From: Siderastrea radians
Lineage: Eukaryota > Cnidaria > Anthozoa > Scleractinia > Rhizangiidae
Reading direction: 5' to 3'
Assembly (NCBI GenBank): GCA_964017195.1
Contig: OZ024887.1
Location: 61,426,811-61,490,810 of the forward strand
DNA: 64,000 bases
Below the pieces are notes generated by a model. That model was not told where the DNA came from, ran no database searches, and saw only the letters and a list, made by a program, of their open reading frames with translations. The translations under genes were made by a program, and so were the position numbers. This document shows, one piece after another, positions 3,491 through 51,380 of this stretch; position 1 is the first letter of the stretch, and the number at the start of each line of letters is the position of its first letter.

Positions 3491-4973
3491 AGTAGTTTCC
3501 TATAGGATTATCGAAAATAGGAAGTAGGCAGATCACAATATCACCATGGGCAATTATCTTAATCCAGCAAGTAGGATTCTGTAATTCAGTAACAATTTTA
3601 AGGATTTTGGATATTGCTTCTCTTGTAAAGAGTCTAGCTCAATAACCACGACTGCTCATACAGAAAAAAAAAAACATTCAAATCAGGCGTAAAATCTATG
3701 GGAAACACTTAGTTAATAGCTATGGAATTGTCTGGAGCATTTTGATTAAGGATTATCATTGGGCAGGACCTAATTATAAAGTCACTTTATCCGTCGTCGA
3801 GATAACAAAAGCATTCTTCTAGCAAATCGCTAACGGGGTGAAACGAGTTTTTGATGATATACACGATGTGATAATTTGTTAATTAAATAATTGCCATACA
3901 AGGAGTAAGATTTATTACCTTGGCTGCCACAAGAATTGGGTTAACAAGAACATCAATGGATAGTGAAATTGATCATGAGTGGAATTTAATTTGACAGCAG
4001 CAAGTGGTAGGATTAATTTTGACATATTAGGAGCTGAACGATCAAAGCATGATAGCTTAAAATCCTTATGTCAACGTGCGTTGTCGGTTGGCGTTGCAAA
4101 TCGAAAAGCCAAATGAAAATAATCAAACTGGATCCTCTCTTTTCTCAGGCTTCAAGTTAAAAAACAATTCTTAGCACTGAAAATCCAAAACAACAACCAG
4201 TACTAACAAGAAAAGAACCGCCCAACAGCTTTCAATTGAATGATTACCCTTTAGGACTTCATCCACAGACTGAAAAGTTAGAACCACCATGAACAGCGTA
4301 GTAGTCATCACGACAAGAACGTATGATCAGCAGCTTTTAAGTGAATGGTCGCACATAAGGATTTCATTCACAGACTCGAAAGCTAGAACCTGTTACGCGT
4401 CATAGATCAAAAGGAACGACTCACCAGGAGTGCAAAGGTTAACCATGCTCGGTTTTTTGTTTTTGTTTAAGCATTATCTCGATTTATTAAAAGTCTGCTT
4501 GATGACAAGGCTTAAATAAACGTGATTGTAATTTCTATATGTTTTAAATCCTTTCAGCGGTAGCTTTCACTCTGTTAAGTGTGAATTTTCTATGATGTCT
4601 CATAACGGTACTTTTTACGGACCACCGGAGCGATAATACCTCAATTTTAATTTAAGAAAATTAGAGGGAAAGTGGTAATAACTAATGTCAAACAATTATA
4701 GTAAATTAACAGTTGTCATTATCAAAAAGGGATTATTACTTTATATTGCTTTAAGGAAATATGAGGTAGAGAGAATATTCCTAATAGAGTAATTATTTTC
4801 TGGATCAAGTTGTCTAGAAATATTGAAATACTATTACTCAACAAATTTGCGTTTTCATGAACTTAGTTATACTTGTAATTACAGACATTACAGTCTTCTT
4901 TAATTGGTTTCTTGCACGTATTTTGTCTTTTTTTTCTTGGTAATGACTTTGGCTAGTTTCTTTAGGGCCGATC
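3491..4973. other. Intergenic, no gene seen
   Basis: AT-rich DNA following the receptor gene. No open frame with recognisable content, no RNA gene and no clear repeat boundary is seen. It should include the 3' untranslated region of the receptor. Confidence 0.4.
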
Positions 4974-5235
4974 CAGACGGTACAACTTTAATGTTATATG
5001 CGACTTGCTGACGAATAGCATGTGAAAATCAAAGCTACAACTTGCGCACGATTGCCATGCAAGACAAAAAATATGTCATAGGATTTTGAAACATGTTTTA
5101 ATACCTTCCAACAATCGTAGCCAGAGGCAATGATAAACGGTAAGCATGTTGGTACGATTTTTTTCAACAACGCGAGCAGTGAGCGCTTCAAAAGTCGCAT
5201 GCGACAGCCGTACACGGCTTAAGTCGTACCGTCTG
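4974..5235. mobile_element. MITE with AGACGGTAC ends (copy 1)
   Basis: A 262-bp non-coding element whose left end reads CAGACGGTACAACTT and whose right end is the near inverse AAGTCGTACCGTCTG. The same ends recur at 61353-61610 around a different body of similar length, so this is a dispersed short inverted-repeat family. No target-site duplication was settled by eye. It has no coding capacity and would depend on a transposase supplied elsewhere. Confidence 0.65.
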
Positions 5236-5730
5236 AATATGCTCTTACAATCAGCAACCAGAGAGGATAAAGGGGTATCCCCTCTTGTCAGCAACGATTA
5301 CAAACAAACAGTTACGATTCGTTGGCGATCACATGGAATTCAGTCTTCAATCGAGCGATCGTGGTTGCTGATCGCTAATCCGTGATTCTATGTGTTCGCT
5401 GACGAGCTTCTTTCAATGAACAATTTTTCTACGAAATCGATTCGTGCATGAGCTCAACCCAGTGCCCTTCCCCTCCTGCGGGAAGGTACAGATACAGGGT
5501 GCAACATTTTAGCTTGTAAATAGTAAGCCATCCATGTAATTAGGTTATGTGATGGTGAATTAAACTGAAACTAACAATTAAAAAATGGAAACTTACTCAG
5601 GATGTTTCGGATGGCATCCACCATCCTTGAACAGCAGTGTGATTTGTCCTTGGTATTCGGTAGACTGGTCCCTAGATAGGACTCGGTCTCAGACTCCCGA
5701 ACGTTCCACCTGGAGGCCACCTCTCCGCTT

Positions 5731-6301
5731 TTAAGAGCCGTTGTCAGTAACTTTCGAGAATCCGGCGACAGAGCCGAAAATTCGAATTTCTTTTTATTTG
5801 CCCAAAAGAACCCTTTTGGTGAACTATTTTCAAAAATAATATTTAAAAGTTCCAGCCAGTTTTTATTTTGGCAAAAAACGGAAAGTTCGAAATTGGCCTA
5901 AACGGGCCTTCGGACCCGATGTAAATTATGCAAATTCGTACATTTTCAAAACGCTCGTACAAGACAACGAAAACTTGCCTGGAATTAATCTTTTCACAGT
6001 TTGTTAGACATCTTTTGAAGTTGCTTTTAAACTAAACTTTTCATCGATCTAAACGTTCTTTGCTTCATATCCACGCACGTAAAGAGTACAGTATTCTCTA
6101 TTTCGTTGATACACTGAATTTTACCAATTTTTAGAAGACCATACCATCGGGGGTATACGAATATCTAGGCAATAAAAGGGCTCGTTTGAATCGGAAATGC
6201 TTGTTGTTTATCAAATAAAAATATTTAGTTTGGCCCGGGGAAAACGAGCGCGCTAGATGAAAATATGTGGAGTTCATTTTGACAGATTTCGCCATTTCTT
6301 T
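5731..6301 (+). repeat. Left terminal inverted repeat
   Basis: The 571-bp left arm matches the inverse of 15236-15806 along its whole length, with a low density of mismatches that rises toward the inner end (around 6240-6300). Homology stops sharply after GCCATTTCTTT. Open frames inside it are incidental. Confidence 0.88.
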
Positions 6302-8212
6302 CTTGCACGGCCTGTCACACACATTTTGTGTCGACTTAACTTTACCTTTTTTTCTCTGCCACCGCTTTTATTCATTGTAATTGTTTAAAAACGCTTTATT
6401 AAAGCATCCCACTACCATTGTCAAGCTACCAAACGACTCTTTTGCAGGTGAAGTTTTTTAGTTTATTTTACGTGAGTTCTAAATAAACAAGTCGCCTCAA
6501 AATACATAATCAATACTTTTATTATGGGCCGGGGAAATAAGCGGCTTCCGATGTAGTGTATTTTCCAGTCGCCTATATCATAGATATTAAAACTATTCTA
6601 CTTTTAATACTTAAGAAATAAAGTACAAATGTTGCTTAATATTCGTCCGATGTAAAAATGAAAGCCCGCATAATTTTATTATTCAGCAATTGTAACACTA
6701 GAAAGGAATTGCGTTGTACTTTATCAAAGGCGCGCGTGCCGATGTTTTTATTTTGCCTTTGTATATCTTTCCCACTGTCACTGGACTATGACACTAGAGT
6801 TTTTATGTGTTGAATCCCATCTGTTATAATACATTTGCTAATCAAGTACAGCTCTGTTATAACTTTGTAAAGATTGTTAAAGAAACAATGCAATAGCCCG
6901 GACTCATTCAATTTATCGACACTGAAATAAAAATAACTTGATAGTCAGACTGGAAACCTAGATTTAGATAAATGTTCTTACTTGTTTGTAGTCCACATGT
7001 TTCAAGCAGATTGCATCTGAAGACGTAGGGGGTAGGGTCTCTTGAAAAGCAAACCTGAACTCACAATTTCCTGTGATTCAACGAAACTTCAAAGTTTCAA
7101 CGAAGCGAGTTGCGTGACCAATGAAATGTCACATTTCACCCGCAGAAAAAAAATGAGGAAAAGTCAATATACTGATTTGCGCTAGCCTCTGTAAAGCCAC
7201 TCCATTGCCACAAGAAAAATGAAGTGACAGGTTTTTTGTCTTAAAAAAAGGAAAATGATAAGAAAAAATAGAGAAGGGCCTAAAATACAATTTCATTTTG
7301 GTGTATGAGAACTCATTACAATGTCAACATCCCGTTTATTAACTCACTGCCCACCCGACAATTCCGTACCACCTCCTATAAACAAGTATGCCACAGCTCC
7401 TCGACGGCTCTTCTTTACAAAAAGTTGCACTAAAATGACTTTTTTTACCTCTCAAATAAGCGTATATACTGATATCTGTGGCAAGAAGACACTTTTGTGG
7501 CGGGCAACTGTCACGCGCGCGCGCGTTTGCTATCCTGCGCGCAGAGTCTCCTATTTCCACGTGTGGAGCAAAGGAAATAGACGACGTCTGCACGCAGGCT
7601 AGCGTTTGCTCGCTCCACTACATATGGAAGCACCCGAAAGAATAAATCACAGAAAGAGGCCATCTGGGAGGAGAAAGCTTTCTAGCAGACCGTATAAGAA
7701 TAATTCACGCTGTTCACGCTACAAAGCGGGTAGGGGTCTACTTACCAAGTATTGAATAACGGTAGCGAGTTAGTAAGAGCGGTTTTAGCTGAGTGCTGTA
7801 AAACCAAAACCAAACTAATAACTGGCCGATCACAACAGACACAAAGAATCGAATGTAAATTACATACATCTAGCCAGAGCCAAGCGCGTGAAGCGCACGC
7901 GAGCAATCATGTTTGGTTTTGGTGTTAATACTCCTCGTTGGTTGCCAAAGTGGCACGAGGTTTTTTTTTTAGTCAAACACAACCAAACGCAACCCATAGC
8001 AATGCAAAACCAAAGCAAAGAAGATGTTTACTCTTCCGACACTCAAGTTAAGACACCCTTAACAGGCAGATTTAGCAAGGACAAGTCGTTGACAAGGAAG
8101 CTGAGACGACAAGGACCCGACGAAGTTTTAAGAGAATTACGTTGCTTTGGCGTTTTCGACCTTATGCACGCGTCAGTTGTCGAATCAACACGTCAGTCAT
8201 TGCTAAATCTGC
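6302..8212. other. Transposon interior, non-coding 3' side
   Basis: Lies between the left terminal repeat and the last exon of the transposon gene. Frames at 7321-7602 and 7888-8265 have no recognisable content. A GC-rich stretch of alternating CG near 7514-7526 is the only compositional oddity. Confidence 0.5.
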
Positions 8213-9099
8213 CTAATAATCGGATCCAGAACGTCCACAGGAGCAGCCGTCAACAAGGCCAGTGAGAGCCTGTATATATGAAGACTTCTTTCTTCGGTCC
8301 CCAACAGATACCTCAAGGTTCAACTTCTCGCAAAGCATTTGCAACAGACCCATCTTCAAGTTCTTTAGAGTGTCGTTGCAGACCATTGCACATATATCGT
8401 ACTGGTCATATACAATAGGGTGCTCTAGGTTCATTGACGTAAGAATCACTTCCCTTGCCTGTTGAAAGTTTACTTCCTCCTCTGCAGCGAAGATGTCCTC
8501 GTCAGTTGCGACCAGTTGTTGGCGAACTTTAGCTGCAAGTCTACCAAAAAAAGACGTGATCTGATGCACTGTTAGGAACTCTGTGGCCTTGAAAAGACGT
8601 TTCCCATCCGGGCCCAAGGCTCGTCTCATTTCCTTTGCTACGACGTTGGGGTCGAGTTTTCGTCCTGTTGCCTGGCCAAGATTAAACTTTGCCTCTAGGT
8701 AGCTCTTCTGTGTTTCATTAAACCGATAGGCTTTTTTAACGTCTTTCAAGGCCCAGCCCTCTTGTGTAACATTCACAGCAGTGGTAAATGGTGATGCTAA
8801 ATACAAAGTTGGCATGGTTGCCATACCTTCACGGAGGAGAGAAGCATATTCCGTCTTAGCCAGGTCTAACAAGGAAAGCCTTTCCAGTGATGTTGAACAT
8901 TTCTCGAACGAGAGATGTCGGTCAAGGCTTGATAGTCGTTGAAAGAGCCTGGTGCATCCATCTTGTGGGCATGGATAGGCCCCACCTTCAGTGTCCCCTT
9001 CTGTTTTCCTCTCCTCAGCTTTTCTTCTACGGGTGTGCTCAGCAACATATTTGAAGTCGCCAGCAGAAAAAGAGCCTGACAACCATTTGTAACCACGAT
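8213..9099 (-). CDS. Putative transposase exon 6, C2HC finger
   Basis: The acceptor after a pyrimidine tract (CTTTAG) leads into RGYKWLSGSFSAGDF. A basic stretch (HTRRRKAEERK) is followed by a finger-like motif, Cys-x4-Cys-x12-His-x5-Cys, in CPQDGC...RHLSFEKC. A long helical C-terminus follows and ends CSCGRSGSDY at a TAA. A DNA-binding role for the finger is inference from its form. The exon needs phase 1 from the previous exon, which the visible donors of exon 5 do not cleanly provide. Confidence 0.6.
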
Positions 9100-12000
9100 C
9101 TAAAGCAAAGAAAGAAAAAACGATAATTGAGCAATTAGAAACGGTAATTCTAGGCCTGGAGTGAGGTACACAGAGTGGAAAACGCAATACACTGCCTAAA
9201 TCCCTATTCAGTGAAGGTTAAGCCTTTTTCTGATGTTAGCTAAAACCAATTGTATTAAAACATGAAAAATTATGGTGCAGGCGCGCATACATTATCTGAT
9301 ACAAACACGACAGTGAATTTGAAGGATTTCAACAAGGTACTTGCAAGCTTTCTCATAAATAGTTCGCTATCTAGAGAAGTGTCCGAACAGTGTTTTTAGG
9401 CGGTGATAGGTTCAAGTAAAATACTCAGCTAAGTACTCGCGGATCGGTTGTACGCAAAATGGCCATAATACGTTCTTTAAGAAATCCTCCTCTCTTACCT
9501 GGGTTAACTGTTAAGTCGAGAAGCTTTCCACTTCCAACAGCATAGCCCTTCCAAGCAGTAAGCTTTCCACCGGTGAAGCGGAAGTTATTTAACTTGCTTA
9601 TGCCTGCTATTTTAGGCAGCTCACCACTTAAGGATTCTTCAATGGACTCTGCAACAGCCACTCGGACGCCTTCGATGCCACCATGTGATAGTAGCGCATC
9701 TTTCATTTGCTCTGCATTTGTAACATCGTTGCCCTCATTGATAAACATCCGGATATGACTTTTTGCCGTTGCTGCCATCCTATCCGCTGCACCTTTGCCT
9801 CCCTGAGGGTCGCTGAAGTCCAGGCGTTCTACTTTAACTCCCGTTGAAGTTTCAATGATGGGACATGCTAAAACTGTGCTTGCTGAATGGTAGCACCCAG
9901 CATTGTCTTGACGCAGGAAGACTCTCTCTATCTCTGGATGCTCGGTCTTTAGCGTCTGAATTACGTGCTCCAAGATGACAACTACAGCTGCGCTTCCCTG
10001 ACTACAAGACTGGATGGTATTGATGAAACCCTGCGACTGAAGCCGTCCGTTAATTTTACGGTACGCAACAGATATGTGCCATGAAATTCCCCTTTTTCCG
10101 AACCAGTCAGCCTGGGATTCTCGGTACCTTTGTGGGATGAATTTCATGGCCCAATCATTCACCAACAGCACGGTACGCTCATCAAGGAGGTCCAGGGCGT
10201 CAAGGCGTGCCTGATCTTGCCTAACCGTTCTTAATTGGTGGCACCTCCATGCCTGGATAGCCAGGGAAGCACTTTGGTAGAGGTAGAAAGCCTCGTCTCG
10301 ATCGTCTTCGCTGCGGAATGGAATCTCTCGTAACAGCTTCTCGATATCGCTCAGTGCAGATGATAAACCTGTGCATTGGTCACATTTTTGGTCATGAATG
10401 TGAGCACATAACTGCCTATGGTCTGCGTCTGACGGATCACTCAGTGAATAAGTGCTGCAATGCTCTGCAACAGGAGAGCTATCAGTGATGTGAACCTGGT
10501 TGACAAATGTTAACAAAACGGTTTTAGCAAATATTGTACGCGACGTTGTCTTGTGCTGTACGAGCTTTGACCTTTGAAAGCCTATGCTCAGAACTATACT
10601 TTTTAAATCTTCCCAGCCTAGATAAACAAATCACGTAAAGCACGCAATGCACACAATGGAGGGTAATTGTAGTTTTAATAAAAGGTGAGAGACTAAATTT
10701 CGAGGCCGAGTCTTTTGAGCACACAAATGCAGTACACGCATGAGCCTCCAGTTCAGGAAGACCTTTAAGTTAACATCTTAACTGTTCTAAAAATCCTGGC
10801 GGCTTCAACTTAAGTCGAACTCGGACTAGGCAAAAGTTGAAAAAAAACGTGTAGTCTGAAATCTGTGCGTGGACGGACAAAAGTTAACAGTGCTCGTCTT
10901 ATTTAGAAGCGCCTCTCAGTTTGCGTAGATTTTTTTTACCTTTAATACTACAAAAGCGCGTTAAGTAAAAGCGCAATATAAAAAAGAATGCAAGAAAGCA
11001 TTTACGTTTTCGGCAGTTTTTACTCAGAGATTTGCATGTATTAGTATAAAAAACGGCAAAGTAAACACGATTTAGGGGGAGTGGATTGAGTGCCTAGCCA
11101 CCACCCAAAATCCTTCAAAAAATAAATTAATTAACAAACTAACTTGGAAAATAAATAAGGCACAATAAATAAGTATAAAAATTGCTGTTCTTTTTCAGCG
11201 TAGCCCACCCCCTTCAAAAAATTCTGGATCCAACCCTGGGTTTACCTTGCAAGAAAAAAAATGTTACCTTAAAGTCGCTCTTAAGATATAGCTTTCCGGC
11301 CTTTAGCGCCTCCTGTAGGCCCTTTACTCTCTCCTTGCTTGTTCCCTTTTCCAAAGCTTCTTTTAGAACAGTAGACAAGTCGTCGAAAGCGCGTGCTCCC
11401 TCTGCAGCAAAGTAGTCGAGGCCTTGAAGGGACTTGCGTACGGAGGCGCTGCACTCTGAAAGAATCCTCGTCATTGTGCTCTCACTGAATGGTGTGAAAC
11501 TAGTGTCCGAACAGTACTGCTTGTATTGCCTAACGATTCGCTGTGGAATCAAGGTCCGTATTACGTTAGGAACCGCAATGCTCTGACCATTTGACAGCAT
11601 AAGATTCTTTTCACCAAACGGAAGGTCCTGCACCAAATGAGGACTTGTAATGAAACTCAAAAAGTGGTCTAACTGCCGCCTATCAACTCGTAACCTCGGG
11701 GCGTCTTTACTTGGTACAGGAACTGCTCTACCATGTTGGAGACGATGCAAGTTGGCCATGGTGTAACGATATGGCGTTAGCCCGGGAATGTGGACTGATA
11801 TTGCTTTGTAGCTTGCGATACCTGCCATAATAGACAAAACCTGCCTTCGCGTGTCCCATGCTTTCGCGTTCTTGTATGCTTCTGCCAAAGCCTCAAGATA
11901 ACTTCTATCAGATGGATGGCAAACTGCCTCGTCACCCAACATTTTACTAATTGTTGTGGAAGCCTGTAGTTCAGTCCACAGAGAACCAGGGTCATCGGGA

Positions 12001-14016
12001 TAAACCACTTTGAGAACGGATGAAATTATCTCCGATGCTCTGTGCACGTATCTTTGGCGCGTTCTTTCGCTAGCTTCGGCCCACTCTAGCCAAGGTTTTC
12101 CAAGTGCTTGGATTTGGCATTCCTCAAGAAAAGCATTGAGTTTGGACCGTTGAAGCTCAAAACCAGTCATTCCATTTTCCAAAGAGGAAGATGCCGTGCT
12201 CATTGTCTCAGGGGATGGGACGAAACTTTCTTCGTGAATCTGAAGACGTTCCATTTTACCAGCTAATCCTCCTGATGCTGTACTTTTGTCACTCTCCTGT
12301 GAGAAATCAAAAACGCAAACGTAAATTTACATACAGGAAGCGAGCTATCAGCCATGCAGCCACGTAGCTCGTAAGTGACTCGATCGTTACTGGTATTCAA
12401 AATAGAGCTAATTTGTTGTAGACGACGTATTAAAGATATGGAAAAATTGGCGGGTCAGTTTAGCAAACGTAAATACAGAGGGGGTACGTAAATTTTGATT
12501 TTCTTTTGTCTTATGCAAGCCTCAAATTTATCCTCATATTATACCGTCTTGGTAGTTTAGACTTTTGGCGCAATGATCAACATTTACCGCAGAAATCTGA
12601 AACACCCCTAAAATAGTATCGGAAATACCACGGCCAAGGGAGTGCGTGCATGGTCCACACCAAGAATTTTTCAGGTTCCTGAAGAACTTCTTAGCAATCG
12701 AAAATGTACGCACCTAGCTAGACAGAAAACCTTACAATGGTACAAAATATTATCTAAAGGGGAAACCTTATTAACCTGACTTTTTGTCCGGCTTTCTGTT
12801 TACGGAACCCACCTGTGTTGCTTCGTCACTGCTTTTTGAGCTCTCTTTTTCCTCTTCAGGAGACAGTGTAGCAGAGACGTCCGCTGAAAGACTGTGTTTT
12901 ACTAGCTCCTGCAAATGATCTCTACATCGCTTGCAAATTGCTAAAAAGCAACGACAAAAAAAAAAAACGAAATTATTGTGCAATTCAATTAGCCTTATAC
13001 ATAGTAAAAAAGAGAGATTCAAAACAGTCTTTTTAAACTTATTTAGCCAATTTCTTCACGACGGAACTCGGCCGTTTCGCAACGGCGATCTATGATTCAT
13101 TCGGAGATCATAGCAGCAATTGCTACTCTAAAAATCCGAATGTTTAAATAAAGAATGTTTAAATAAAGTTTATGTATGTATGTATGATGGATCGTCGGGA
13201 AACGCCGGTTTATTTGAGGGCGTTGGTTTGTTTATCGTTTGATACAGAGACCTGGGGAGAGGCGGGAAAATTCTTCCCGCCATCTTGTCGCGTTCGCACT
13301 CCCTCCACGCTCGCGCGCCAGGATCTTCCTTTCCTCCCCAACCCTTCCTCCCGTTGTTAGAGCTTTCCTAGTATCCGTTCCTCTTTAACTAACGTACAGG
13401 TTCGCTCTTCTTCTTTTCCAAAACTAACAACGTCATAGTCTCCTTTACTACCAAAATGTAGTCATATTTCAATGAAGCACCTTCAGTCATACCTCGAAGG
13501 ACATTGAGTATCAGTTTGCCGTTCTCACGGCATTGACTTTAAGATGTAACTTACGAGTTCCCACAGGATGAAGTTCGCCCACTGTGATTGAAATGAACGA
13601 CGATTCTGCACTGTTCATTCCGCGATCTCCCTTCGTTGTTGGCGATTTATGCCCTGCCACTTCAGTGGGGACGGAGCATCGCACCTTTCCACTTCTCCAC
13701 GGTGGTGAGGGCATATAGTCATCTCCGAGTGTGAACTTTCAGCAGTAAATATCCCTGGAAATAATAACCAATTAGTACAAACCAATTAATTCAATTTTTT
13801 AACAGTCAAACGAGAAACCGTACCTGCCCTTGCCAGTAATAACGCCATTTCGTCAGAAATTGCTTCATCCGGACCAATTTTTAATGACTTCAGGTGTGGG
13901 TGAACGTCCTTATTGCATTCTCTAAGCGTAACACATTGAAAATCTTGTGGATCTTTTGAGCTCGCTCCGCACGGGGAAGTGAGGTGAAATAGGGACGAAA
14001 AACTGCAAGTTGCCAT
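8213..14016 (-). CDS. Putative transposase of the TIR element, six exons
   Basis: Hand-built model, 5' to 3' on the minus strand: 14016-13824, 13754-13555, 12940-12813, 12296-11268, 10495 to about 9437, and about 9099-8213. Start is the ATG of MATCSFSS. Junctions 1-2, 2-3, 3-4 and 4-5 agree in phase (1, 1, 0, 0) once a deletion in exon 2 is allowed for. The exon 5-6 junction is unresolved. Parts in order: a Cys-rich N-terminus with CPHHR and CKRCRDHL, a helical region (exon 4), an RNase-H-like core with a Cys/His cluster (exon 5) and a C2HC finger (exon 6). I remember the same layout in uncharacterised proteins of cnidarians and other marine invertebrates, but not a name. Because the gene sits alone between 571-bp inverted repeats, a transposase role is inferred. 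The exon 2 frameshift suggests this copy may not make full-length protein. Confidence 0.7.
9437..10495 (-). CDS. Putative transposase exon 5, RNase-H-like core
   Basis: Encodes about 350 uninterrupted residues. Counting from the upstream in-frame Met (10516), there is a Cys/His cluster at 37-48 (CAHIHDQKCDQC). Acidic candidates for the metal site follow: Asp121 in VNDWAMKFIP, Asp204 in LRQDNAGCYHS, and Asp236 or Asp245 in DFSDPQGGKGAADR, followed by an NEGNDV stretch near 260. The order and spacing (hydrophobic strand ending in Asp, second Asp about 80 residues later, then an acidic helix) resemble DDE/DDD transposases. Assignment of the third acid is uncertain. The 3' border is set at CGA then GTACTT, but the phase does not match exon 6, so the true donor may differ or a small exon may be missing. 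Confidence 0.65.
11268..12296 (-). CDS. Putative transposase exon 4, helical region
   Basis: An uninterrupted 343-residue exon running from ESDKSTASGG to YLKSDFK, phase 0 at both ends (acceptor CAG, donor AAG then GTAACA). It is Leu/Arg/Glu rich and predicted mostly helical, with Trp residues near the N-terminal third. No named domain is recognised. It joins directly to VHITDSSPVAEHC of exon 5, which reads as one continuous protein. The intact length argues for recent selection or recent insertion. Confidence 0.65.
12813..12940 (-). CDS. Putative transposase exon 3
   Basis: Begins after a pyrimidine-rich acceptor and encodes PICKRCRDHLQELVKHS, whose CxxC probably completes a metal site with exon 2, followed by an acidic Ser/Glu-rich linker. 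The donor CAG then GTGGGT gives phase 0, matching exon 4. A later GT at 12775 would break the phase and is rejected. Confidence 0.55.
13555..13754 (-). pseudogene. Putative transposase exon 2, frameshifted
   Basis: Entering in phase 1 from exon 1, the frame reads through IFTAESSHSEMTICPHHR and then hits a stop. The continuation WRSGKVRCSVPTEVAGHK lies in another frame and runs on to HPVGT, where the GTAAGT donor restores the phase needed by exon 3. In relatives as I recall them, a short Leu-Gly stretch separates CPxHR from Trp-Arg, so a deletion of 3n+1 bases (perhaps 16) at about 13700 would explain both the lost residues and the shift. The exon is 200 nt; a length with remainder 0 modulo 3 is expected from its borders. 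Confidence 0.55.
13824..14016 (-). CDS. Putative transposase exon 1
   Basis: Encodes about 64 residues beginning MATCSFSSLFHL and ending in ALLLARAG, with a Cys-containing stretch (QCVTLRECNKD). The donor is CAG then GTACGG, leaving phase 1. An upstream in-frame ATG at 14148 is possible, but MATCSF fits a compact first exon better. No domain name can be given. Confidence 0.55.
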
Positions 14017-15235
14017 TGTGAGTTTACATACTACACGCTCTCCGAACAAAATGTTACTTTCAAAAGGTATTGCGAAATACGGTCTGGAAGTTTCGAAACT
14101 GCTGTGTTTTGTTGATTTTCCGATTAGTTCGTTCAGTTTGACTGACAAGGCTTTATTTTATAACACCGCACCTTCCGAATTACTGGCCCCATAAAAAGTA
14201 TCCCCAAAATTCGCACAGGATAGACTTTTTTTGACTTAACATCATGAATAAATAATGAAACTATCGTGATTCTTGTTTTAATTCATCGAGTATAACCTGA
14301 AAGGTTTTTTCATTAAAGAAGGAACGAACGAAAGAAAGAAAAGCTGTCACATGAAAAGCAAATATTGACAGTCTGAGTCATTTCCTGGCCATTTCCCTCC
14401 CGCGCTACTGTATCACATTTCAGTTGTCACGCAACATGCAACTCGCTTTTGGCCGGTATTGATCATTTTTGTCCGATGTTACCATTGTACGAAATTTCAG
14501 CTAAGGATTGCTTTCTGAGGGACCAGAAAATGATTCAAACATTGCAAGTAAGTAAATCACTGTATGTCTGAACAGTGGAATGATTTTCTAAGTCTGGTTT
14601 TAGAGTGTCTGTTCCGATCGCGGAATGAGTTCGCCAGCAAGTCAGTGTGAATGGCCTGATTGCATTATATTTTCAAAAATTTTAACAAACAAATATCAAA
14701 GCCAAGCTTCATTGGCAAATGTGTTGTAGCAGGTGGACTGCAAAAACATGCTATTTACGTGCCAGCGGTTAAGGTTTATATAGAAACACAAAAGCATCGC
14801 GCAGACGTTTTCATTTGCATGGGGAGTTCTCTGATAACATCTATCCCTCTGAATTCCTTTATCGAAACGTGACTTAATGGCATATTCATTCAAGGTTTCT
14901 TTTTACTCGAATTCACGTACTTTAACATTTAAAATTTTAATATTTGCCCTAAAGTGACGGCAGTAAGGTAGTTTGGAAAAGTTTGAAAAGCGAAATATAC
15001 GCGCGAGCGGCGCGACAGGTTAACATCGGGTCATCAAAACATCACATTGTCGACAGGGATCTTTCATCGTCTAATTGTTCTTTTATTTGAAACGCGTAAA
15101 ATAAAGTTAAAACATCGCTTTGGCTAAGGAAATCTTTTAGCTTACGTTCAATATATATAAAAGCAGTATGGTACAGACCAGAAACGTCGACCGTTTTGTC
15201 TGAATAGCATATTTGACTTGAAATAGAAGTACAAT

Positions 15236-15806
15236 AAAGAAATGGCGAAATCTGTCAAAATGCACTCCACATGTTTTCATTTTGCGCGCTTGCTTTTCAC
15301 GGGCCAAACTAAATATTTTTATATGATAAACAACAAGCATTTCCGATTCAAACGAGCCCTTTTATTGCCTAGATATTCGTATACCCCCGATGATATGGTC
15401 TTCTAAAAATTGGTAAAATTCAGTGTATCAACGAAATAGAGAATACTGTACTCTTTACGTGCGTGGATATGAAGCAAAGAACGTTTAGATCGATGAAAAG
15501 TTTAGTTTAAAAGCAACTTCAAAAGACGTCTAACAAACTGTGAAAAGATTAATTCCAGGCAAGTTTTCGTTGTCTTGTACGAGCGTTTTGAAAATGTACG
15601 AATTTGCATAATTTACATCGGGTCCGAAGGCCCGTTTAGGCCAATTTCGAACTTTCCGTTTTTTGCCAAAATAAAAACTGGCTGGAACTTTTAAATATTA
15701 TTTTTGAAAATAGTTCACCAAAAGGGTTCTTTTGGGCAAATAAAAAGAAATTCGAATTTTCGGCTCTGTCGCCGGATTCTCGAAAGTTACTGACAACGGC
15801 TCTTAA
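15236..15806 (-). repeat. Right terminal inverted repeat
   Basis: Inverse of 5731-6301, same length, ending CGGCTC then TTAA and unique flank GTGC. The right flank after 15806 has no match to the left flank before 5731, so the repeat boundary is sharp on both sides. Confidence 0.88.
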
Positions 15807-16608
15807 GTGCACAGATATTTTTGCGCAACATTGCGCATGGGGCCGGACACATACTACGTGTCGAATCGAGTGCATTTTCTAAAACGTTGCGGGCAATATT
15901 TTCAGAGTAGACTGATAACAACAGAACCAGGAGTGGCTCTACGCTGTAATTTCGTTGCATGTATGAGCCCTTAGATTTCACTCGTACCTTGAACAATTCA
16001 TTTTGCAGCGTAGAGAAATTCTGTAAATTCAGCTGCTACCATAATCATTGGCAGGCCAGAAATGGCCTCTTTCAAGGGCCGGTCATCAATTGATGAGGTT
16101 AGTTAAACTTGACTGACAGAGCTGTTTTTTTTTCTCATCAAAATTACTGACTGTTACAGCGAGTCGCACACATTTCGTAAACAAATGTCCGTAACCCAGT
16201 TTGGCAGCTTCTAATTGCTAGAAAAAGGTGTTGTTGGTGCTTGCCAAGCCGGCTCAACGAAGACGTTGATGTTTGGCTTCAAGTGAAACGTTGGTGATCA
16301 CCTGGCATGTTTAGTTATGAAACGAAGATATGCTCGGGAATTTGGCTGCTTTTTTTTTTATTTCGCTAAACCTACTACAATTACAGACCCCTGGTTGCCC
16401 ATAACACAATTTTTCTTTCATGTTCATTCAAATAAGCATTACTAACCTCGTTCTGGAGCTTGTAGTTCTGAAATAACGTTAGAATTGCCACAGGGTTAGT
16501 GAAGCTAATTTGAATCAAATGAAAAAAAAAAAGATATTTTAGTCGGCGGCCGTCTTTTTGCAAATTAAGGTTCTTCTTTTCATTTAAACTAGGCGAAACG
16601 AGGACTAG

Positions 16609-16895
16609 CTAAATATGTCCCACAGTTTGATTAGAAAAGTGCATGAGATGCAATCCAAGATGAACTTGTTTTGCCTGCACCTTGCCGCACGTGCTCTTGG
16701 ATGCAAAATAGTCAGTTTTATCGTTAAGTGTCTCCCATGGACTCCAAAAGCCGTTGAAATGTCTTGGGTCTGCTTTAGGGCTTATCAGTGGATAAACGAC
16801 TGGTAAAGCTGTACGGCGGTAGTAATTCAGACGCTCCTTCAGTTCCAGCACTTTTAGTGGATAAAGGTGCGAGACATCTCTGTATTCACAAGGAT
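16609..16895 (-). CDS. Sulfatase last exon
   Basis: Starts DPCEYRDVSHLYPLKVLELKERL, the Cys-containing C-terminal pattern of ARSB-type enzymes, and ends at TAG with 95 codons. It continues the phase of the exon at 17425-17648 (NLADG-DPCEY). A poly(A) signal was not fixed. Confidence 0.88.
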
Positions 16896-19800
16896 CTGGA
16901 ACAAGAAAAGCACAGTATGAGGTTCCCTTTAAAAGAAAGGTTTGGCGGCCTTGAGGCCGGGGGCTTAAAATAAATAATCGCATCCTGGATTCGAGTTAAT
17001 TTGAATAATTTTCAAGTCAATCAGATCTGCTAACATGAATGCAACGTCAAGCGGAAATAACCGAAATGACAAAAGACGTTACAACGACGTTGCAAAAAAA
17101 AAAAAAAAAAAAAAGAAAAAAGACAAAAAAAAAGGGTTGGCGGGTTGAGGCCGGGGGCTTCAAATTATGGCATCCTGGATTCGAGTTAATTTGAATGATT
17201 TTCAAGTCATTCAGATCTGCTCTCATGAATGCAACGTCAAGCGAAGATGACCGAAACGACAAAAGAAGTTACAAAGACAGGAAAGGGAAAAGGAACCGGG
17301 AAAAGGAAAAGCCACTGGCGCACTTTCTCAAGACCCTCCGTCCATTCTTGGATCTTGGCGTCCCAAAAATTCATACAAAAGCCTATAACTTTAGACATTC
17401 TGGTTAGCTTTTATTAACTCTCACCGTCAGCCAGGTTAAATAGACAAGCTTTGTGATGTTTTGAGTTACACATATCCTTCCCATTCGTCCACGGGCCACA
17501 GTTGATTACTGCTCCTGGAAGAGTTAGAGGTTTCTCCCAGGGTGGAGGGTTAAGGGTCGGATACGGCGCATGCCAGCCCAGTTCAAACGAGTCATCCATT
17601 CCGACCACAAGTTTAAAGTTGCCTTTCCGAATACCTTCAAACTTTAACCTTGAAAAAGCAATTACAAACAAGAAATGATAATTTCCATCAATCTTTCCAC
17701 AGTGATTGTGTGTGTGTTTTTTCCACAGGTTACTAGTGAGATTTTTGGGATGTAAAATGTAAACTTCTCCATTTGGAGAATTAGGTGGAATATCTTTTGA
17801 TTGTTCAGTTAACCAAAGTATACTCCTTAGTGCTAGACCGTTATTATTTTTTTTTTTGCAGCCTCTTTTTTAAGATATGTAGTATAGGGTGTTTAAGATA
17901 CCGACTGGTTAATTGGCGAAACGGTTTCCTGAGCGGCCCGTTTCTCGAAACTCCCACTAACGTCCCGGGGCTGATAAGAAAGTTTTGAAAAACGTTTTAT
18001 GGGGTTGTTTGAAAGTGTTAATGCAAGCTTGCAGCTGTGTTCCGTAATAAAACGGTAAATATTTTAAGATTTAGCTTTCCAAAAATAAAATCAAAATCAA
18101 AAACAAAAAAACATTGAGCCAGTTGTATTGGCCACATAAATTAGTTGACGAGCCCGGGTGAGATCAGTGTTAGGATGTGTTCACGCCCAGCTAACCTTTT
18201 TTTCCGCTTGTTGTAGCCGAACGAACTTGGATAAATCAGGGAGCAGATATGAATCATCATTATTAAATTAACTTTAAACACTTGTCGGCCTAGCAAAAAA
18301 CATTCCACCTAAAGATATTAACAACCTGATTAAACGTGTCTTCAAATGGGGAAAATAACATCCATAAAATCCGACTAGTAACCAATAGGAAAAAAAAAAA
18401 GCAGGGAATGAAAACAAAAGAAAATTCTATAACCAAATAAGCAAAAATACAATCAAAAACAAAGCCAATACAAACAAAAAATTAATTCCCGCCAATATTA
18501 AGTTCACTGCGGGTCTTGTTTTCAGCGGACTCCACTCTACACTTGACCAGGCTCCTCGCGGCTCATTTCAATTTAGCATAAAAACAAATCACGTTTTGCG
18601 CCTTCAACTGGGGTTTGCGAAGGCATTTGAGCGAATTTTCTCCAAGTTTCCGCCTTATTAAACTTCGAGGAAATACTCAGAATTGGATTCTAAAAATAAA
18701 CAATGGAAGAAACATGTATTATCTTCGTGAAATGTTTCAGGTTTTGGAAGGAAAGGTTGATGGAGTTGGTGTTGTCTGTTGATTCAGAAACCGAAGGTGA
18801 GAGAAAACACTAGCAACCTAAGAGAAATATTTCTTTGCATCTTAATAATCAATTACATTGCATATAAGAGTTTTAATTTATTTATAGCTACTGAGAATTT
18901 GGTAAAATTTCCGCACAGCCTCACTATCAGAACTATGCATACCGGAAAGGGGGGGGGGGGGGGACTCAATTTTTAAACATGGGGAGGCTCCGCCCGGAGG
19001 CGCAAACCCTTACTTAAATATGCTAATTTTTATCAAAATGACAGCCCTTTCATATACCTAGAGAAAAACTTATACCCTCTTATACCTAAATGGTACATAG
19101 TCAAAACAATAGTTTGAATATCCTATGTTCCCCCCTTTTTTTCCTGGGCTTTCAGTTGCCCTGGTTCAGCTGCTGAAAGCCAAAATTCTGCCAAAATTTG
19201 TCACCCATTTATATATTTCACCATAGTTAATAAAAGGATCTGGTTATGAAGCTCAGCAAGGTCTTTTGTTTTATGTTTTTGTTACCGTTTTTGGCCTTGG
19301 CCGTGCACAAACAACAATAGGTTTGAATTTTGCATGAGCAACGAACCAATGAAAATGTCACTGTTAAGTTATTCAGCCATAGTGTGCGAACGTAAAACAA
19401 AAGATTGTGCACGGTCGTAGAACTTTCAACATAAATTGCAGCACCTTTGTTATGGCCTTTGAAACTTGTAAGGTTTCATAACCAGTCCCTCGAGTAACTA
19501 TGATTTAACTTAAGCTGCTATCTGTTTATCTTTGTAGAGCACTTTGGTGACCCTGTAATATACTTAAATAACAATTCTCCCTACCCTTTTGTTTACAGTA
19601 AACTTAAAAAAGGCACCTTTTTTGGCGAATCCTCCCCGTTTAGCCTACAATAGGGAACCACTCTCCCCCCCTCCCCCCGGGATTCATACATTTTCTGATT
19701 CAAGCTCTTTTTGTGATTACTCTTTGAGAGAAATACTCCAAAAGTAATTAAAAGCATAATTTATGTTTGGGGTTGTCAGGGAATTTTACCAAGAGTTTGT

Positions 19801-45109: not shown

Positions 45110-46553
45110 TCTAAAATAGGGAACGGGAAATGGAGTAACGGGGAACGGGGAATGGGGAACGGGGAATCTCTAAAATAGGGAATCTCTAAAACGGGGAATC
45201 TCTAAAATAGGGAATCTCTAAAACGGGGAATCTCTAAAATAGGGAATCTCTAAAATAGGGAATCTCTCAAACGGGGAATCTCTAAAATAGGGAATCTCTA
45301 AAATAGGGAATCTCTAAAATGGGGAATCTCTAAAATAGGGAATCTCTAAAATAGGGAATCTCTAAAATAGGGAATCTCTAAAATAGGGAATCTCTAAAAC
45401 GGGGAACTCTAAAACAGGGAATCTCTAAAATAGGGAATCTCTAAAATAGGGAATCTCTAAAAGAGGGAATCTCTAAAACGGGGAATCTCTAAAATAGGGA
45501 ATCTCTAAAATAGGGAATCTCTAAAACGGGGAATCTCTAAAACGGGGAATCTCTAAAATAGGGAATCTCTAAAATAGGGAATCTCTAAAATGGGGAATCT
45601 CTAAAATAGGGAATCTCTAAAACAGGGAATCTCTAAAACGGGGAATCTCTAAAATAGGGAATCTCTAAAACGGGGAATCTCTAAAATAGGGAATCTCTAA
45701 AATAGGGAATCTCTAAAACGGGGAATCTCTAAAACGGGGAATCTCTAAAATAGGGAATCTCTAAAACGGGGAATCTCTAAAATAGGGAATCTCTAAAATA
45801 GGGAATCTCTAAAATAGGGAATCTCTAAAACGAGGAATCTCTAAAACGGGGAATCTCTAAAACGGGGAATCTCTAAAATAGGGAATCTCTAAAATGGGGA
45901 ATCTCTAAACTAGGGAATCTCTAACATAGGGAATCTCTAAAACGGGGAATCTCTAAAACGGGGAATCTCTAAAACGGGGAATCTCTAAAATAGGGAATCT
46001 CTAAAATGGGGAATCTCTAAACTAGGGAATCTCTAAAAATAGGGAATCTCTAAAACGGGGAATCTCTAAAACGGGGAATCTCTAAAATAGGGAATCTCTA
46101 AAACGGGGAATCTCTAAAATAGGGAATCTCTAAAATAGGGAATCTCTAAAATAGGGAATCTCTAAAACGGGGAATCTCTAAAACGGGGAATCTCTAAAAT
46201 AGGGAATCTCTAAAATAGGGAATCTCTAAAATGGGGAATCTCTAAAATAGGGAATCTCTAAAACAGGGAATCTCTAAAATAGGGAATCTCTAAAACGGGG
46301 AATCTCTAAAACGGGGAATCTCTAAAATAGGGAATCTCTAAAATAGGGAATCTCTAAAACGGGGAATCTCTAAAACGGGGAATCTCTAAAATAGGGAATC
46401 TCTAAGACGGGGAATCTCTAAAATAGGGAATCTCTAAAATAGGGAATCTCTAAAATAGGGAATCTCTAAAATGGGGAATCTCTAAAACAGGGAATATCTA
46501 AAACAGGGAATCTCTAAAATAGGGAATCTCTATAATAGGGAGTCTCTAACATA
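45110..46553 (+). repeat. 16-bp minisatellite, left arm
   Basis: About 85 units of AAAATAGGGAATCTCT and AAAACGGGGAATCTCT. The two bases after AAAA are mostly TA or CG, with only a few TG and CA. The outer 50 bp carry GGGAAC/GGGAAT variants without the TCTCTAAAA part. Several units are a base longer or shorter (for example near 45405 and 46035). Confidence 0.9.
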
Positions 46554-49500: not shown

Positions 49501-49672
49501 CTACATCGAAAAAGATACCTCTCTTCAATCTGCAATTACGGTGCCTTATTAAAGGGATGTGTGACGAGTTGGTCACGCAACGCGTTTATAGGGTCCCTTG
49601 GGTTATCTATCCTTTCCAAATTATGGTGGAGAGAAAAACAGACATGAAATTTAAGTTCGGGCTTCTGGATTT
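46554..49672. other. Core of the foldback element
   Basis: 3.1 kb with no transposase motif. It includes a fragment of the CATAGTTA repeat family (about 47012-47218) and overlapping frames on both strands. The longest, 49444-48923 on the minus strand (173 codons, with a hydrophobic run near residues 20-40), has no recognisable domain and no convincing coding features. Confidence 0.5.
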
Positions 49673-51246
49673 AGAGATTCCCTATTTTAGAGATTCCCCG
49701 TTTTAGAGATTCCCCATTTTAGAGATTCCCTATTTTAGAGATTCCCCGTTTTAGATATTCCCTATTTTAGAGATTCCCCGTTTTAGAGATTCCCTATTTT
49801 AGAGATCCCCTATTTTAGAGATTCCCCGTTTTAGAGATTCCCTATTTTAGAGATTCCCCGTTTTAGAGATTCCCTATTTTAGAGATTCCCTATTTTAGAG
49901 ATTCCCCGTTTTAGAGATTCCCCGTTTTAGAGATTCCCTATTTTAGAGATCCCCTATTTTAGAGATTCCCCGTTTTAGAGATTCCCTATTTTAGAGATTC
50001 CCCGTTTTAGAGATTCCCTATTTTAGAGATTCCCTATTTTAGAGATTCCCCGTTTTAGAGATTCCCTCTTTTAGAGATTCCCTATTTTAGAGATTCCCTA
50101 TTTTAGAGATTCCCCGTTTTAGAGATTCCCCGTTTTAGAGATTCCCTATTTTAGAGATCCCCTATTTTAGAGATTCCCCGTTTTAGAGATTCCCTATTTT
50201 AGAGATTCCCCGTTTTAGAGATTCCCTATTTTAGAGATTCCCTATTTTAGAGATTCCCCGTTTTAGAGATTCCCTATTTTAGAGATTCCCTATTTTAGAG
50301 ATTCCCCGTTTTAGAGATTCCCCGTTTTAGAGATTCCCTATTTTAGAGATTCCCTACTTTAGAGATTCCCCGTTTTAGAGATTCCCTATTTTAGAGATTC
50401 CCTGCTTTAGATATTCCCTATTTTAGAGATTCCCCGTTTTAGAGATTCCTTATTTTAGAGATTCCCTATTTTAGAGATTCCCCGTTTTAGAGATTCCCTA
50501 TTTTAGAGATTCCCCGTTTTAGAGATTCCCTATTTTAGAGATTCCTTGCTTTAGATATTCCCTATTTTAGAGATTCCCCGTTTTAGAGATTCCCTATTTT
50601 AGAGATTCCCCGTTTTAGAGATTCCCCGTTTTAGAGATTCCCTATTTTAGAGATTCCCTATTTTAGAGATTCCCCGTTTTAGAGATTCCATATTTTAGAG
50701 ATTCCCCGTTTTAGAGATTCCCTATTTTAGAGATTCCCTGCTTTAGATATTCCCTATTTTAGAGATTCCCCGTTTTAGAGATTCCCTATTTTAGAGATTC
50801 CCTATTTTAGAGATTCCCCGGTTTAGAGATTCCCTATTTTAGAGATTCCCCGTTTTAGAGATTCCCTATTTTAGAGATTCCTTGCTTTAGATATTCCCTA
50901 TTTTAGAGATTCCCCGTTTTAGATATTCCCTATTTTAGAGATTCCCCGTTTTAGAGATTCCCTATTTTAGAGATTCCCTATTTTAGAGATTCCCCGTTTT
51001 AGAGATTCCCTATTTTAGAGATTCCCCGTTTTAGAGATTCCCCATTTTAGAGATTCCCTATTTTAGAGATTCCCCGGTTTAGATATTCCCTATTTTAGAG
51101 ATTCCCCGTTTTAGAGATTCCCTATTTTAGAGATTCCCTATTTTAGAGATTCCCCGTTTTAGAGATTCCCTATTTCAGAGATTCCCCGTTTTAGAGATTC
51201 CCTATTTTAGAGATTCCCTGTTTTAGATATTCCCTATTTTAGAGAT
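49673..51246 (-). repeat. 16-bp minisatellite, right arm
   Basis: The same 16-bp unit as the left arm, inverted (AGAGATTCCCTATTTT and AGAGATTCCCCGTTTT), about 98 units. A variant block containing CTTTAGATATTCCC recurs at about 50402, 50545, 50742 and 50882, which suggests a higher-order period of roughly 9-12 units. Confidence 0.9.
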
Positions 51247-51380
51247 TCCCCGTTCCCCATTCCCCGTTCCCCGTTCCCCGTTCCCCGTTCCCCGTTCCCC
51301 GTTCCCCGTTCCCCGTTCCCCGTTTCCCGTTCCCCGTTCCCCGTTCCCCGTTCCCCGTTCCCCGTTCCTTGTTTCCCCGT
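51247..51380. repeat. (CGTTCCC)-type short tandem repeat at the right end
   Basis: About 18 short units of CGTTCCC with a few variants, between the 16-bp array and the terminal GGCTATC inverse. The left arm has the shorter counterpart (GGGAACG units, 45124-45166). Confidence 0.85.

What the first reader, a model, noticed from the sequence alone, without database searches (positions are those of the whole stretch)
5731..15806. A 10-kb DNA transposon with 571-bp TIRs whose only gene is an uncharacterised cnidarian DDE-like protein
Two 571-bp inverted repeats of equal length, each with TTAA at the outer edge, enclose a six-exon minus-strand gene with Asp121/Asp204/Asp245-type acids, a Cys/His cluster and a C2HC finger. 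I know this protein layout as an unannotated multicopy family in marine invertebrates. Finding it framed by long TIRs gives it a likely role: transposase of a large, intron-rich, TTAA-targeting element. No piggyBac or Kolobok signature is apparent, so it may be an undescribed superfamily.
Basis: partly seen in the sequence, partly recalled or inferred. Interest (0 to 1): 0.92.

Follow-up and report, generated by a model that had tools for sequence, protein, structure and literature searches.

The report
Recently active coral TTAA DNA transposon
This 10-kb stretch is a DNA transposon that has jumped recently within what is probably a stony coral's genome, and its one recognisable gene, a member of a large family of nameless marine-animal proteins, is very probably the enzyme that moves it; the element probably belongs to a known but little-studied group rather than a new one.

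Summary
The window carries a 10,076-bp element (5731-15806) with 578-bp inverted repeats, 97.8% identical, each ending in TTAA. The same genome holds five more long copies with the gene at unrelated sites: four of 10.1 kb, 99.5-99.7% identical to it (gaps aside), and a 98.5% copy enlarged by insertions. In the 22 two-ended elements read, all 44 ends are TTAA; of four related uninterrupted sites, two show one TTAA, one TTGA, one is unclear. The six-exon gene (1,150 aa) is intact in two other copies; the window copy is broken by a private 19-bp deletion. The exon-5 product is predicted to fold as an RNase-H DDE/DDD core (closest: retroviral integrases, then Mos1) with three near-invariant aspartates. 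Diverged gene subfamilies (62% and 53-55% identical in exon 5) sit with their own long repeats, so gene and repeats belong together. Over 1,100 related database proteins exist; none listed is named a DNA-transposon transposase. Most other copies read are gene-less near-palindromes of one end. The "undescribed superfamily" claim is not shown: features fit Sola (probably Sola3), already annotated as abundant in corals. Membership by sequence could not be tested here.

The parts
5731..15806 (.). Whole element, 10,076 bp including the TTAA at each end
   Evidence: Inverted-repeat ends; same unit at other sites of the genome, 99.54-99.68% identical over ungapped columns in four ~10.1-kb copies (98.9-99.2% by blastn with gaps) and 98.5% in a fifth, enlarged copy
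5731..6308 (+). Left terminal inverted repeat, 578 bp
   Evidence: 97.75% identical to the reverse complement of 15229-15806
15229..15806 (-). Right terminal inverted repeat, 578 bp
5731..5734 (.). TTAA, left target-site copy
   Evidence: TTAA at 44 of 44 ends of 22 two-ended copies; related uninterrupted sites
15803..15806 (.). TTAA, right target-site copy
   Evidence: Same as the left copy
13824..14016 (-). Exon 1 (ATG at 14016)
   Evidence: GT donor; uninterrupted frame with exons 2-6 in two other copies
13555..13754 (-). Exon 2, Cys/His-rich (CPHHR...CSVP); 19-bp deletion in this copy between 13698 and 13697 breaks the frame
   Evidence: 200 bp here, 219 bp in all five other long copies
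12813..12940 (-). Exon 3 (CKRCR motif)
11268..12296 (-). Exon 4, largely helical region before the catalytic core
   Evidence: full-length model of the Oculina relative
9499..10495 (-). Exon 5, Cys/His cluster and RNase-H catalytic core
   Evidence: AlphaFold model, mean pLDDT 82; structural matches
10373..10408 (-). Cys/His cluster C-x-H-x-H-x3-C-x2-C in exon 5
   Evidence: C30, H32, H34, C38 in 44 of 44 aligned relatives, C41 in 42 of 44
10154..10156 (-). D114, first proposed catalytic aspartate (strand 1)
   Evidence: 42 of 43 relatives; strand 108-119 in the model
9905..9907 (-). D197, second proposed catalytic aspartate (end of strand 4)
   Evidence: 41 of 44 relatives; strand 191-197
9782..9784 (-). 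D238, third proposed catalytic aspartate (start of last core helix, GGKGAAD)
   Evidence: 43 of 44 relatives; helix 236-253
8213..9099 (-). Exon 6, C-terminal region with stop codon
8897..8971 (-). C2HC zinc-finger-like motif CPQDGC-x12-H-x5-C in exon 6
   Evidence: Pattern match; a relative scores weakly, below cut-off, with zf-C2H2

Best explanation
A recently mobile DNA transposon of a cnidarian, probably a stony coral (inferred from its relatives; the species is not given). Its 1,150-aa product is an RNase-H-fold transposase with a DDD active site. The likely cycle: the transposase binds the long terminal inverted repeats, cuts the element out next to the terminal 5'-GAG, and joins it into a TTAA whose four bases are repaired into a duplicate on each side. 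Shown by sequence: copies at unrelated sites, TTAA at both ends, related sites with one TTAA, gene and repeats found together in three diverged subfamilies. Predicted: the fold. Inferred: the chemistry, cut-and-paste rather than copying, repeat binding, and mobilisation in trans of the gene-less near-palindromic derivatives. The window copy cannot supply full-length enzyme. As for kind, it is most likely a family of the Sola superfamily, Sola3 group (my estimate 0.65).
Against: No transposition or enzyme activity is shown. Sequence membership in Sola3 was not testable: no Sola protein was at hand, Bao et al. 2009 is not held, and TTAA with GAG termini for Sola3 is recalled only. One diverged gene copy (C2:52.97 Mb, 36% identical) shows no long inverted repeats within the 13 kb read, and at C1:1.94 Mb the gene lies about 5 kb outside the repeat. 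Foldseek's matches are weak (best E 3e-4, to a herpesvirus terminase nuclease). One of the two intact frames has E in place of the second aspartate. D229 and E254 are as conserved as D238, so the third acid is not certain.
Confidence: 0.9

Rival explanations
1. An undescribed superfamily of TTAA-specific DDD transposases.
For: No Pfam match to any of six exon frames and no transposase family in long relatives or in the families shown for 44 exon-5 relatives; no relative in the listed hits is named a DNA-transposon transposase; Kolobok's C/DxxH is found in 0 of 44 and 0 of 12 aligned proteins; piggyBac's termini and short repeats are absent.
Against: All general features given for Sola in PMC10741241 are met, and Sola-3 is the second (Siderastrea siderea) or third (two other corals) most numerous of the DNA classes in the table read; unnamed database proteins are usual for transposases.
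Confidence: 0.2
2. A diverged lineage of Kolobok.
For: TTAA duplication and 5'-RR...YY-3' termini (GA...TC) match the Kolobok rule in PMC9587614.
Against: The C/DxxH motif between second and third acid is absent in 44 of 44 exon-5 relatives and 12 of 12 long ones; no Pfam domain such as THAP was found (that Kolobok often has THAP is recalled).
Confidence: 0.08
3. A host or other gene captured between the repeats of an unrelated TTAA element, so that it is cargo and not the transposase.
For: Most repeat pairs read (16 of 22) lack the gene; at least one diverged gene copy shows no repeats nearby.
Against: Three subfamilies with diverged repeats each enclose the corresponding gene; DDE/DDD-type fold; more than 1,100 related proteins; ten other frames of the element give no Pfam match above cut-off.
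Confidence: 0.04
4. The repeats are an old segmental inversion or assembly artefact and the gene is a resident host gene.
For: None beyond the bare inverted-repeat geometry.
Against: Same 10-kb unit on other chromosome-size contigs with unrelated flanks and TTAA at each end; related uninterrupted sites.
Confidence: 0.01

Closest known systems
Sola superfamily, Sola3 group
   Same: DDD-type transposase, 4-bp target duplication, long and variable inverted repeats, size range (PMC10741241, passages); Sola-3 annotated as common in corals (PMC11370458, passages; PMC12314368, passages). TTAA and GAG termini for Sola3 are recalled, from no call.
   Different: No direct sequence comparison was possible; the six-exon 1,150-aa gene with an N-terminal Cys/His region and a C2HC motif could not be compared with Sola3 descriptions.
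Kolobok superfamily
   Same: TTAA duplication; termini 5'-RR...YY-3' (PMC9587614, part of the text).
   Different: No C/DxxH motif; no Pfam domain found.
piggyBac superfamily
   Same: TTAA target; DDD catalytic acids (the latter recalled for piggyBac).
   Different: Termini GAG instead of CC[C/T]T and 578-bp instead of 12-19-bp repeats (definition in PMC2872659); no Pfam match.
Retroviral integrase and Mos1 mariner catalytic cores (fold only)
   Different: 7-17% sequence identity in the aligned parts of the rows shown; a fold match, not membership.

Membership tests
Sola (Sola3) | DDD transposase (PMC10741241) | tested here: met
   D114/D197/D238 near-invariant and placed on strand 1, strand 4 and last core helix of an RNase-H model; by prediction only, no assay; D229 and E254 equally conserved
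Sola (Sola3) | 4-bp target-site duplication | tested here: met
   TTAA at 44 of 44 ends of two-ended elements; related uninterrupted sites found for 4 of 23 insertions: single TTAA in 2, TTGA in 1, unclear in 1
Sola (Sola3) | Inverted repeats of 11-1124 bp; element mostly 2-9 kb, some over 15 kb (PMC10741241) | tested here: met
   578 bp and 10,076 bp; 836/839 bp and 10,407 bp in a diverged subfamily
Sola (Sola3) | TTAA target with 5'-GAG termini for the Sola3 group (recalled) | tested here: inconclusive
   Both seen here, but the definition is recalled and no paper found states it
Sola (Sola3) | Sequence homology to known Sola3 transposases | not testable with these tools
   No Sola protein or Repbase/Dfam library available; Bao 2009 not held
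Kolobok | TTAA duplication and 5'-RR...YY-3' termini | tested here: met
   TTAA|GA...TC|TTAA (rule)
Kolobok | C/DxxH motif between second D and last acid | tested here: not met
   0 of 44 and 0 of 12 aligned proteins, taking D238 as the last acid
piggyBac | TTAA duplication | tested here: met
piggyBac | 12-19-bp inverted repeats ending CC[C/T]T (PMC2872659) | tested here: not met
   578-bp repeats ending GAG
piggyBac | piggyBac transposase domain | tested here: not met
   No Pfam family for any of the six exon frames at E up to 10 (HMMER's filters drop most very weak matches)

The most novel reading that the evidence does not exclude
The element founds an undescribed superfamily of TTAA-specific DDD transposons found in anthozoans, amphioxus, rotifers and mussels, which would give more than 1,100 nameless proteins a function and add a TTAA integration system with long terminal repeats.
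Probability: 0.2. Interest if true: 0.75.

Novelty: new member of a known kind. Interest (0 to 1): 0.45.

Why it matters
It ties a very large set of unnamed or 'uncharacterized' marine-animal proteins (1,128 matches to exon 5 alone, many of them single-exon pieces) to a mobile element with intact repeats, so these gene models can be recognised as transposases and kept out of counts of host gene families. Two copies keep a full open frame and the long copies are about 99.6% identical, so recent activity is likely and directly testable; an active TTAA-integrating element with long repeats would also be of interest as a genetic tool in cnidarians. The near-palindromic derivatives could form long double-stranded RNA if transcribed, a testable link to silencing (speculation).

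Tried and rejected
Pfam on the exon frames of the window (0 families in 6 of 6), on ten other frames inside the element (only matches below cut-off), on eight long relatives (only weak matches below cut-off, among them DUF7869 in two amphioxus proteins and zf-C2H2 and SAP in one each) and on 44 exon-5 relatives (no transposase family in the 25 of 45 families shown; scattered matches to unrelated families, and one member with a RING finger, a fused gene model). PDB by sequence: nothing credible (one hit, E 1.5). Relatives in viral contigs and GTDB contigs: none confirmed. Foldseek on PDB and viral models gave only weak RNase-H-type matches; the absence of solved piggyBac, hAT or P transposases from the rows shown is not evidence. 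Bacterial-type promoter scan of the 5' end: no more than chance for promoters and not meant for animals; dropped. Uninterrupted relatives were sought for 23 insertions in the DNA in hand; 19 gave none, and C12:33.3 Mb gave only an unclean match (11-15 extra bases). The minisatellite site (C13:36.7 Mb) is weaker than the C13:3.7 Mb one because its units hold TTAA.

Papers: searches (10 of 10). Seen: PMC9587614 outline, abstract and first of six parts; PMC2872659 first two of four parts; passages only of PMC5199201, PMC4455052, PMC12314368, PMC10741241, PMC11370458, PMC10294476, PMC5753468, PMC4735498, PMC8634313, PMC5704228, PMC9297572; the rest search listings only. Bao et al. 2009 (Sola) and Yuan and Wessler 2011 are not held and are recalled. 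In these searches I found no paper that describes this gene with these repeats; supplements were not readable here.
Full report
OBSERVATION. The window holds a single long inverted-repeat pair in 4500-17500. Read from TTAA to TTAA the element spans 5731-15806 (10,076 bp) with 578-bp repeats, 13 mismatches (97.75%), the outer 279 bp identical, and no clear similarity beyond the TTAA. The six exons on the minus strand are 14016-13824, 13754-13555, 12940-12813, 12296-11268, 10495-9499 and 9099-8213, with GT-AG junctions. In the copies at C1:55.87 Mb and C9:33.4 Mb these exons give one open frame of 1,150 aa; the frame is broken in the window copy (19 bp missing in exon 2), the C2:64.9 Mb copy (one base missing in exon 5), the C3:12.07 Mb copy (one extra base in exon 3) and the C13:3.7 Mb copy (insertions and other length changes). 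So 2 of 6 long copies are intact; the two proteins differ at 12 positions, one of them the second proposed catalytic residue, D in one and E in the other. Codon differences between them are 4 silent and 12 replacing, as expected for recent copies without selection.

IT IS A TRANSPOSON. The window lies at G000:C1:61426811-61490810 of an unnamed 805-Mb assembly. Searching the repeat there scored 40 of 688 candidates, all 40 matching at 93-100%. These 40 lie at 27 loci; I read 26 of them, the window included, and not C8:1.45 Mb. Four other 10.1-kb copies are 99.54-99.68% identical to the window copy over ungapped columns (98.9-99.2% by blastn with gaps counted); a 15.9-kb copy is 98.5% identical outside its insertions. 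Of the 26 loci, 22 have both ends: TTAA at 44 of 44 ends. Four have one end: TTAA at 3, TTAT at 1. In the 14 insertions compared, flanks outside the TTAA are unrelated to one another apart from short repeats. Joining the flanks of 23 insertions around one TTAA and comparing with all DNA in hand gave uninterrupted relatives for four: at C13:3.7 Mb, a gene-carrying copy, the relative (L017:189-353, 86.7% over 165 bp) has a single TTAA at the junction; at C13:36.7 Mb (a minisatellite) also; at C10:28.6 Mb (L034:5111-5253, 89.5% over 143 bp) the site reads TTGA; at C12:33.3 Mb the match has 11-15 extra bases and proves nothing. These are related, not orthologous, empty sites.

THE GENE GOES WITH THE REPEATS. 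Exon 5 as a protein matches 113 places in the genome among 1,006 candidates, 41-100% identical. The 14 repeat matches of at least 96% fall at 8 loci; all 8 have an exon-5 match of at least 87% inside or near, though at C1:1.94 Mb the gene lies about 5 kb outside the repeat (a rearranged locus) and the C2:64.9 Mb match is in two pieces. A subfamily with 62% identical exon 5 (C7:17.5 Mb) is a 10,407-bp element with 836/839-bp repeats, 92.9% identical to each other, TTAA at both ends and the same exon order; its terminal ~170 bp align to ours at 73-74%. A third subfamily (C4:41.86 Mb and others, 53-55% identical in exon 5) has a right end TTAAGAGGC...; its 566-bp repeat has 44 matches (758 candidates), of which 14 are full-length at 92% or more and fall at 8 loci; an exon-5 match lies inside (6 two-ended loci) or next to (2 one-ended loci) all 8, with spans of 7,754, 8,480, 8,480, 8,513, 8,518 and 31,343 bp (the two of 8,480 bp look like one duplicated segment, and bases were read at one end of one element only). 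The other 30 matches (28 at 84-87%, two short pieces) were not examined; some form close pairs without room for the gene, such as C5:1.937-1.940 Mb, 2.1 kb. Between our copy and the C7 subfamily dN is 0.27 (exon 5) and 0.33 (exon 4) with dS beyond estimation, so the protein has been kept by selection over long times.

DERIVATIVES. Of the 22 two-ended elements, 6 carry the gene and 16 do not. The 16 are 4.2-5.9 kb long and carry the right-end sequence at both ends; in the 7 analysed further, arms of 1.57-2.57 kb are 92.7-98.4% identical to each other's reverse complement, and only exon-1 (in one case also exon-2) remnants were found. Their repeats are about 92-94% identical to the window's, and they are the commonest form among the copies read.

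MECHANISM. Most likely cut-and-paste into TTAA by the DDD enzyme (conclusion from the above and from established knowledge of DDE/D transposases). The steps of binding, cleavage and joining, and the trans-mobilisation of derivatives, are inferred; nothing here shows activity, and replication during movement is not excluded.

KIND. piggyBac: termini and repeat length not met. Kolobok: TTAA and 5'-RR rule met, C/DxxH not met (0 of 44, 0 of 12). Sola: DDD, 4-bp duplication, repeat length and size met (PMC10741241, passages); Sola-3 has 17,315 copies in Siderastrea siderea, second among the DNA classes of the table read, and is third in the two other corals of that table (PMC11370458, passages); it is enriched in parts of Acropora genomes (PMC12314368, passages). 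That Sola3 uses TTAA and begins GAG is my recollection; no call confirms it. I therefore file it, at 0.65, as a Sola3 family without having tested the decisive feature, and leave 0.2 for an undescribed superfamily.

Noticed in passing
window 45162-46553 and 49670-51250: Two long arrays of a 16-bp minisatellite (GGGAATCTCTAAAATA) in opposite orientations about 3 kb apart; the same repeat flanks a derivative of this transposon at C1:44.1 Mb.
   Followed up: no
L019-L025 and related loci: Gene-less derivatives of the element, 4.2-5.9 kb, carry its right end at both ends and TTAA outside; the 7 analysed are near-perfect palindromes, which if transcribed would fold into very long hairpins.
   Followed up: partly
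L041+L042 (C2:52.97 Mb) and rows with open frames of 649-1093 aa: Some diverged relatives of the gene have one long open frame with few or no introns; the one read (36% identical) showed no long inverted repeats within 13 kb.
   Followed up: partly
L017+L018 (C13:3.7 Mb) and L040+L027 (C10:13.1 Mb): Other sequences appear to be inserted in copies of this transposon, with 6-bp and 9-bp overlaps at the joints that look like target duplications.
   Followed up: no
C9:33.4 Mb copy, exon 5: One of the two copies with a full open frame has glutamate in place of the second near-invariant aspartate.
   Followed up: no
P0130 and P0134 (amphioxus relatives), residues 700-747 and 675-722: Weak, below-cut-off match to the Pfam family of unknown function DUF7869 (E 0.069), a possible distant link to other proteins of unknown function.
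   Followed up: no
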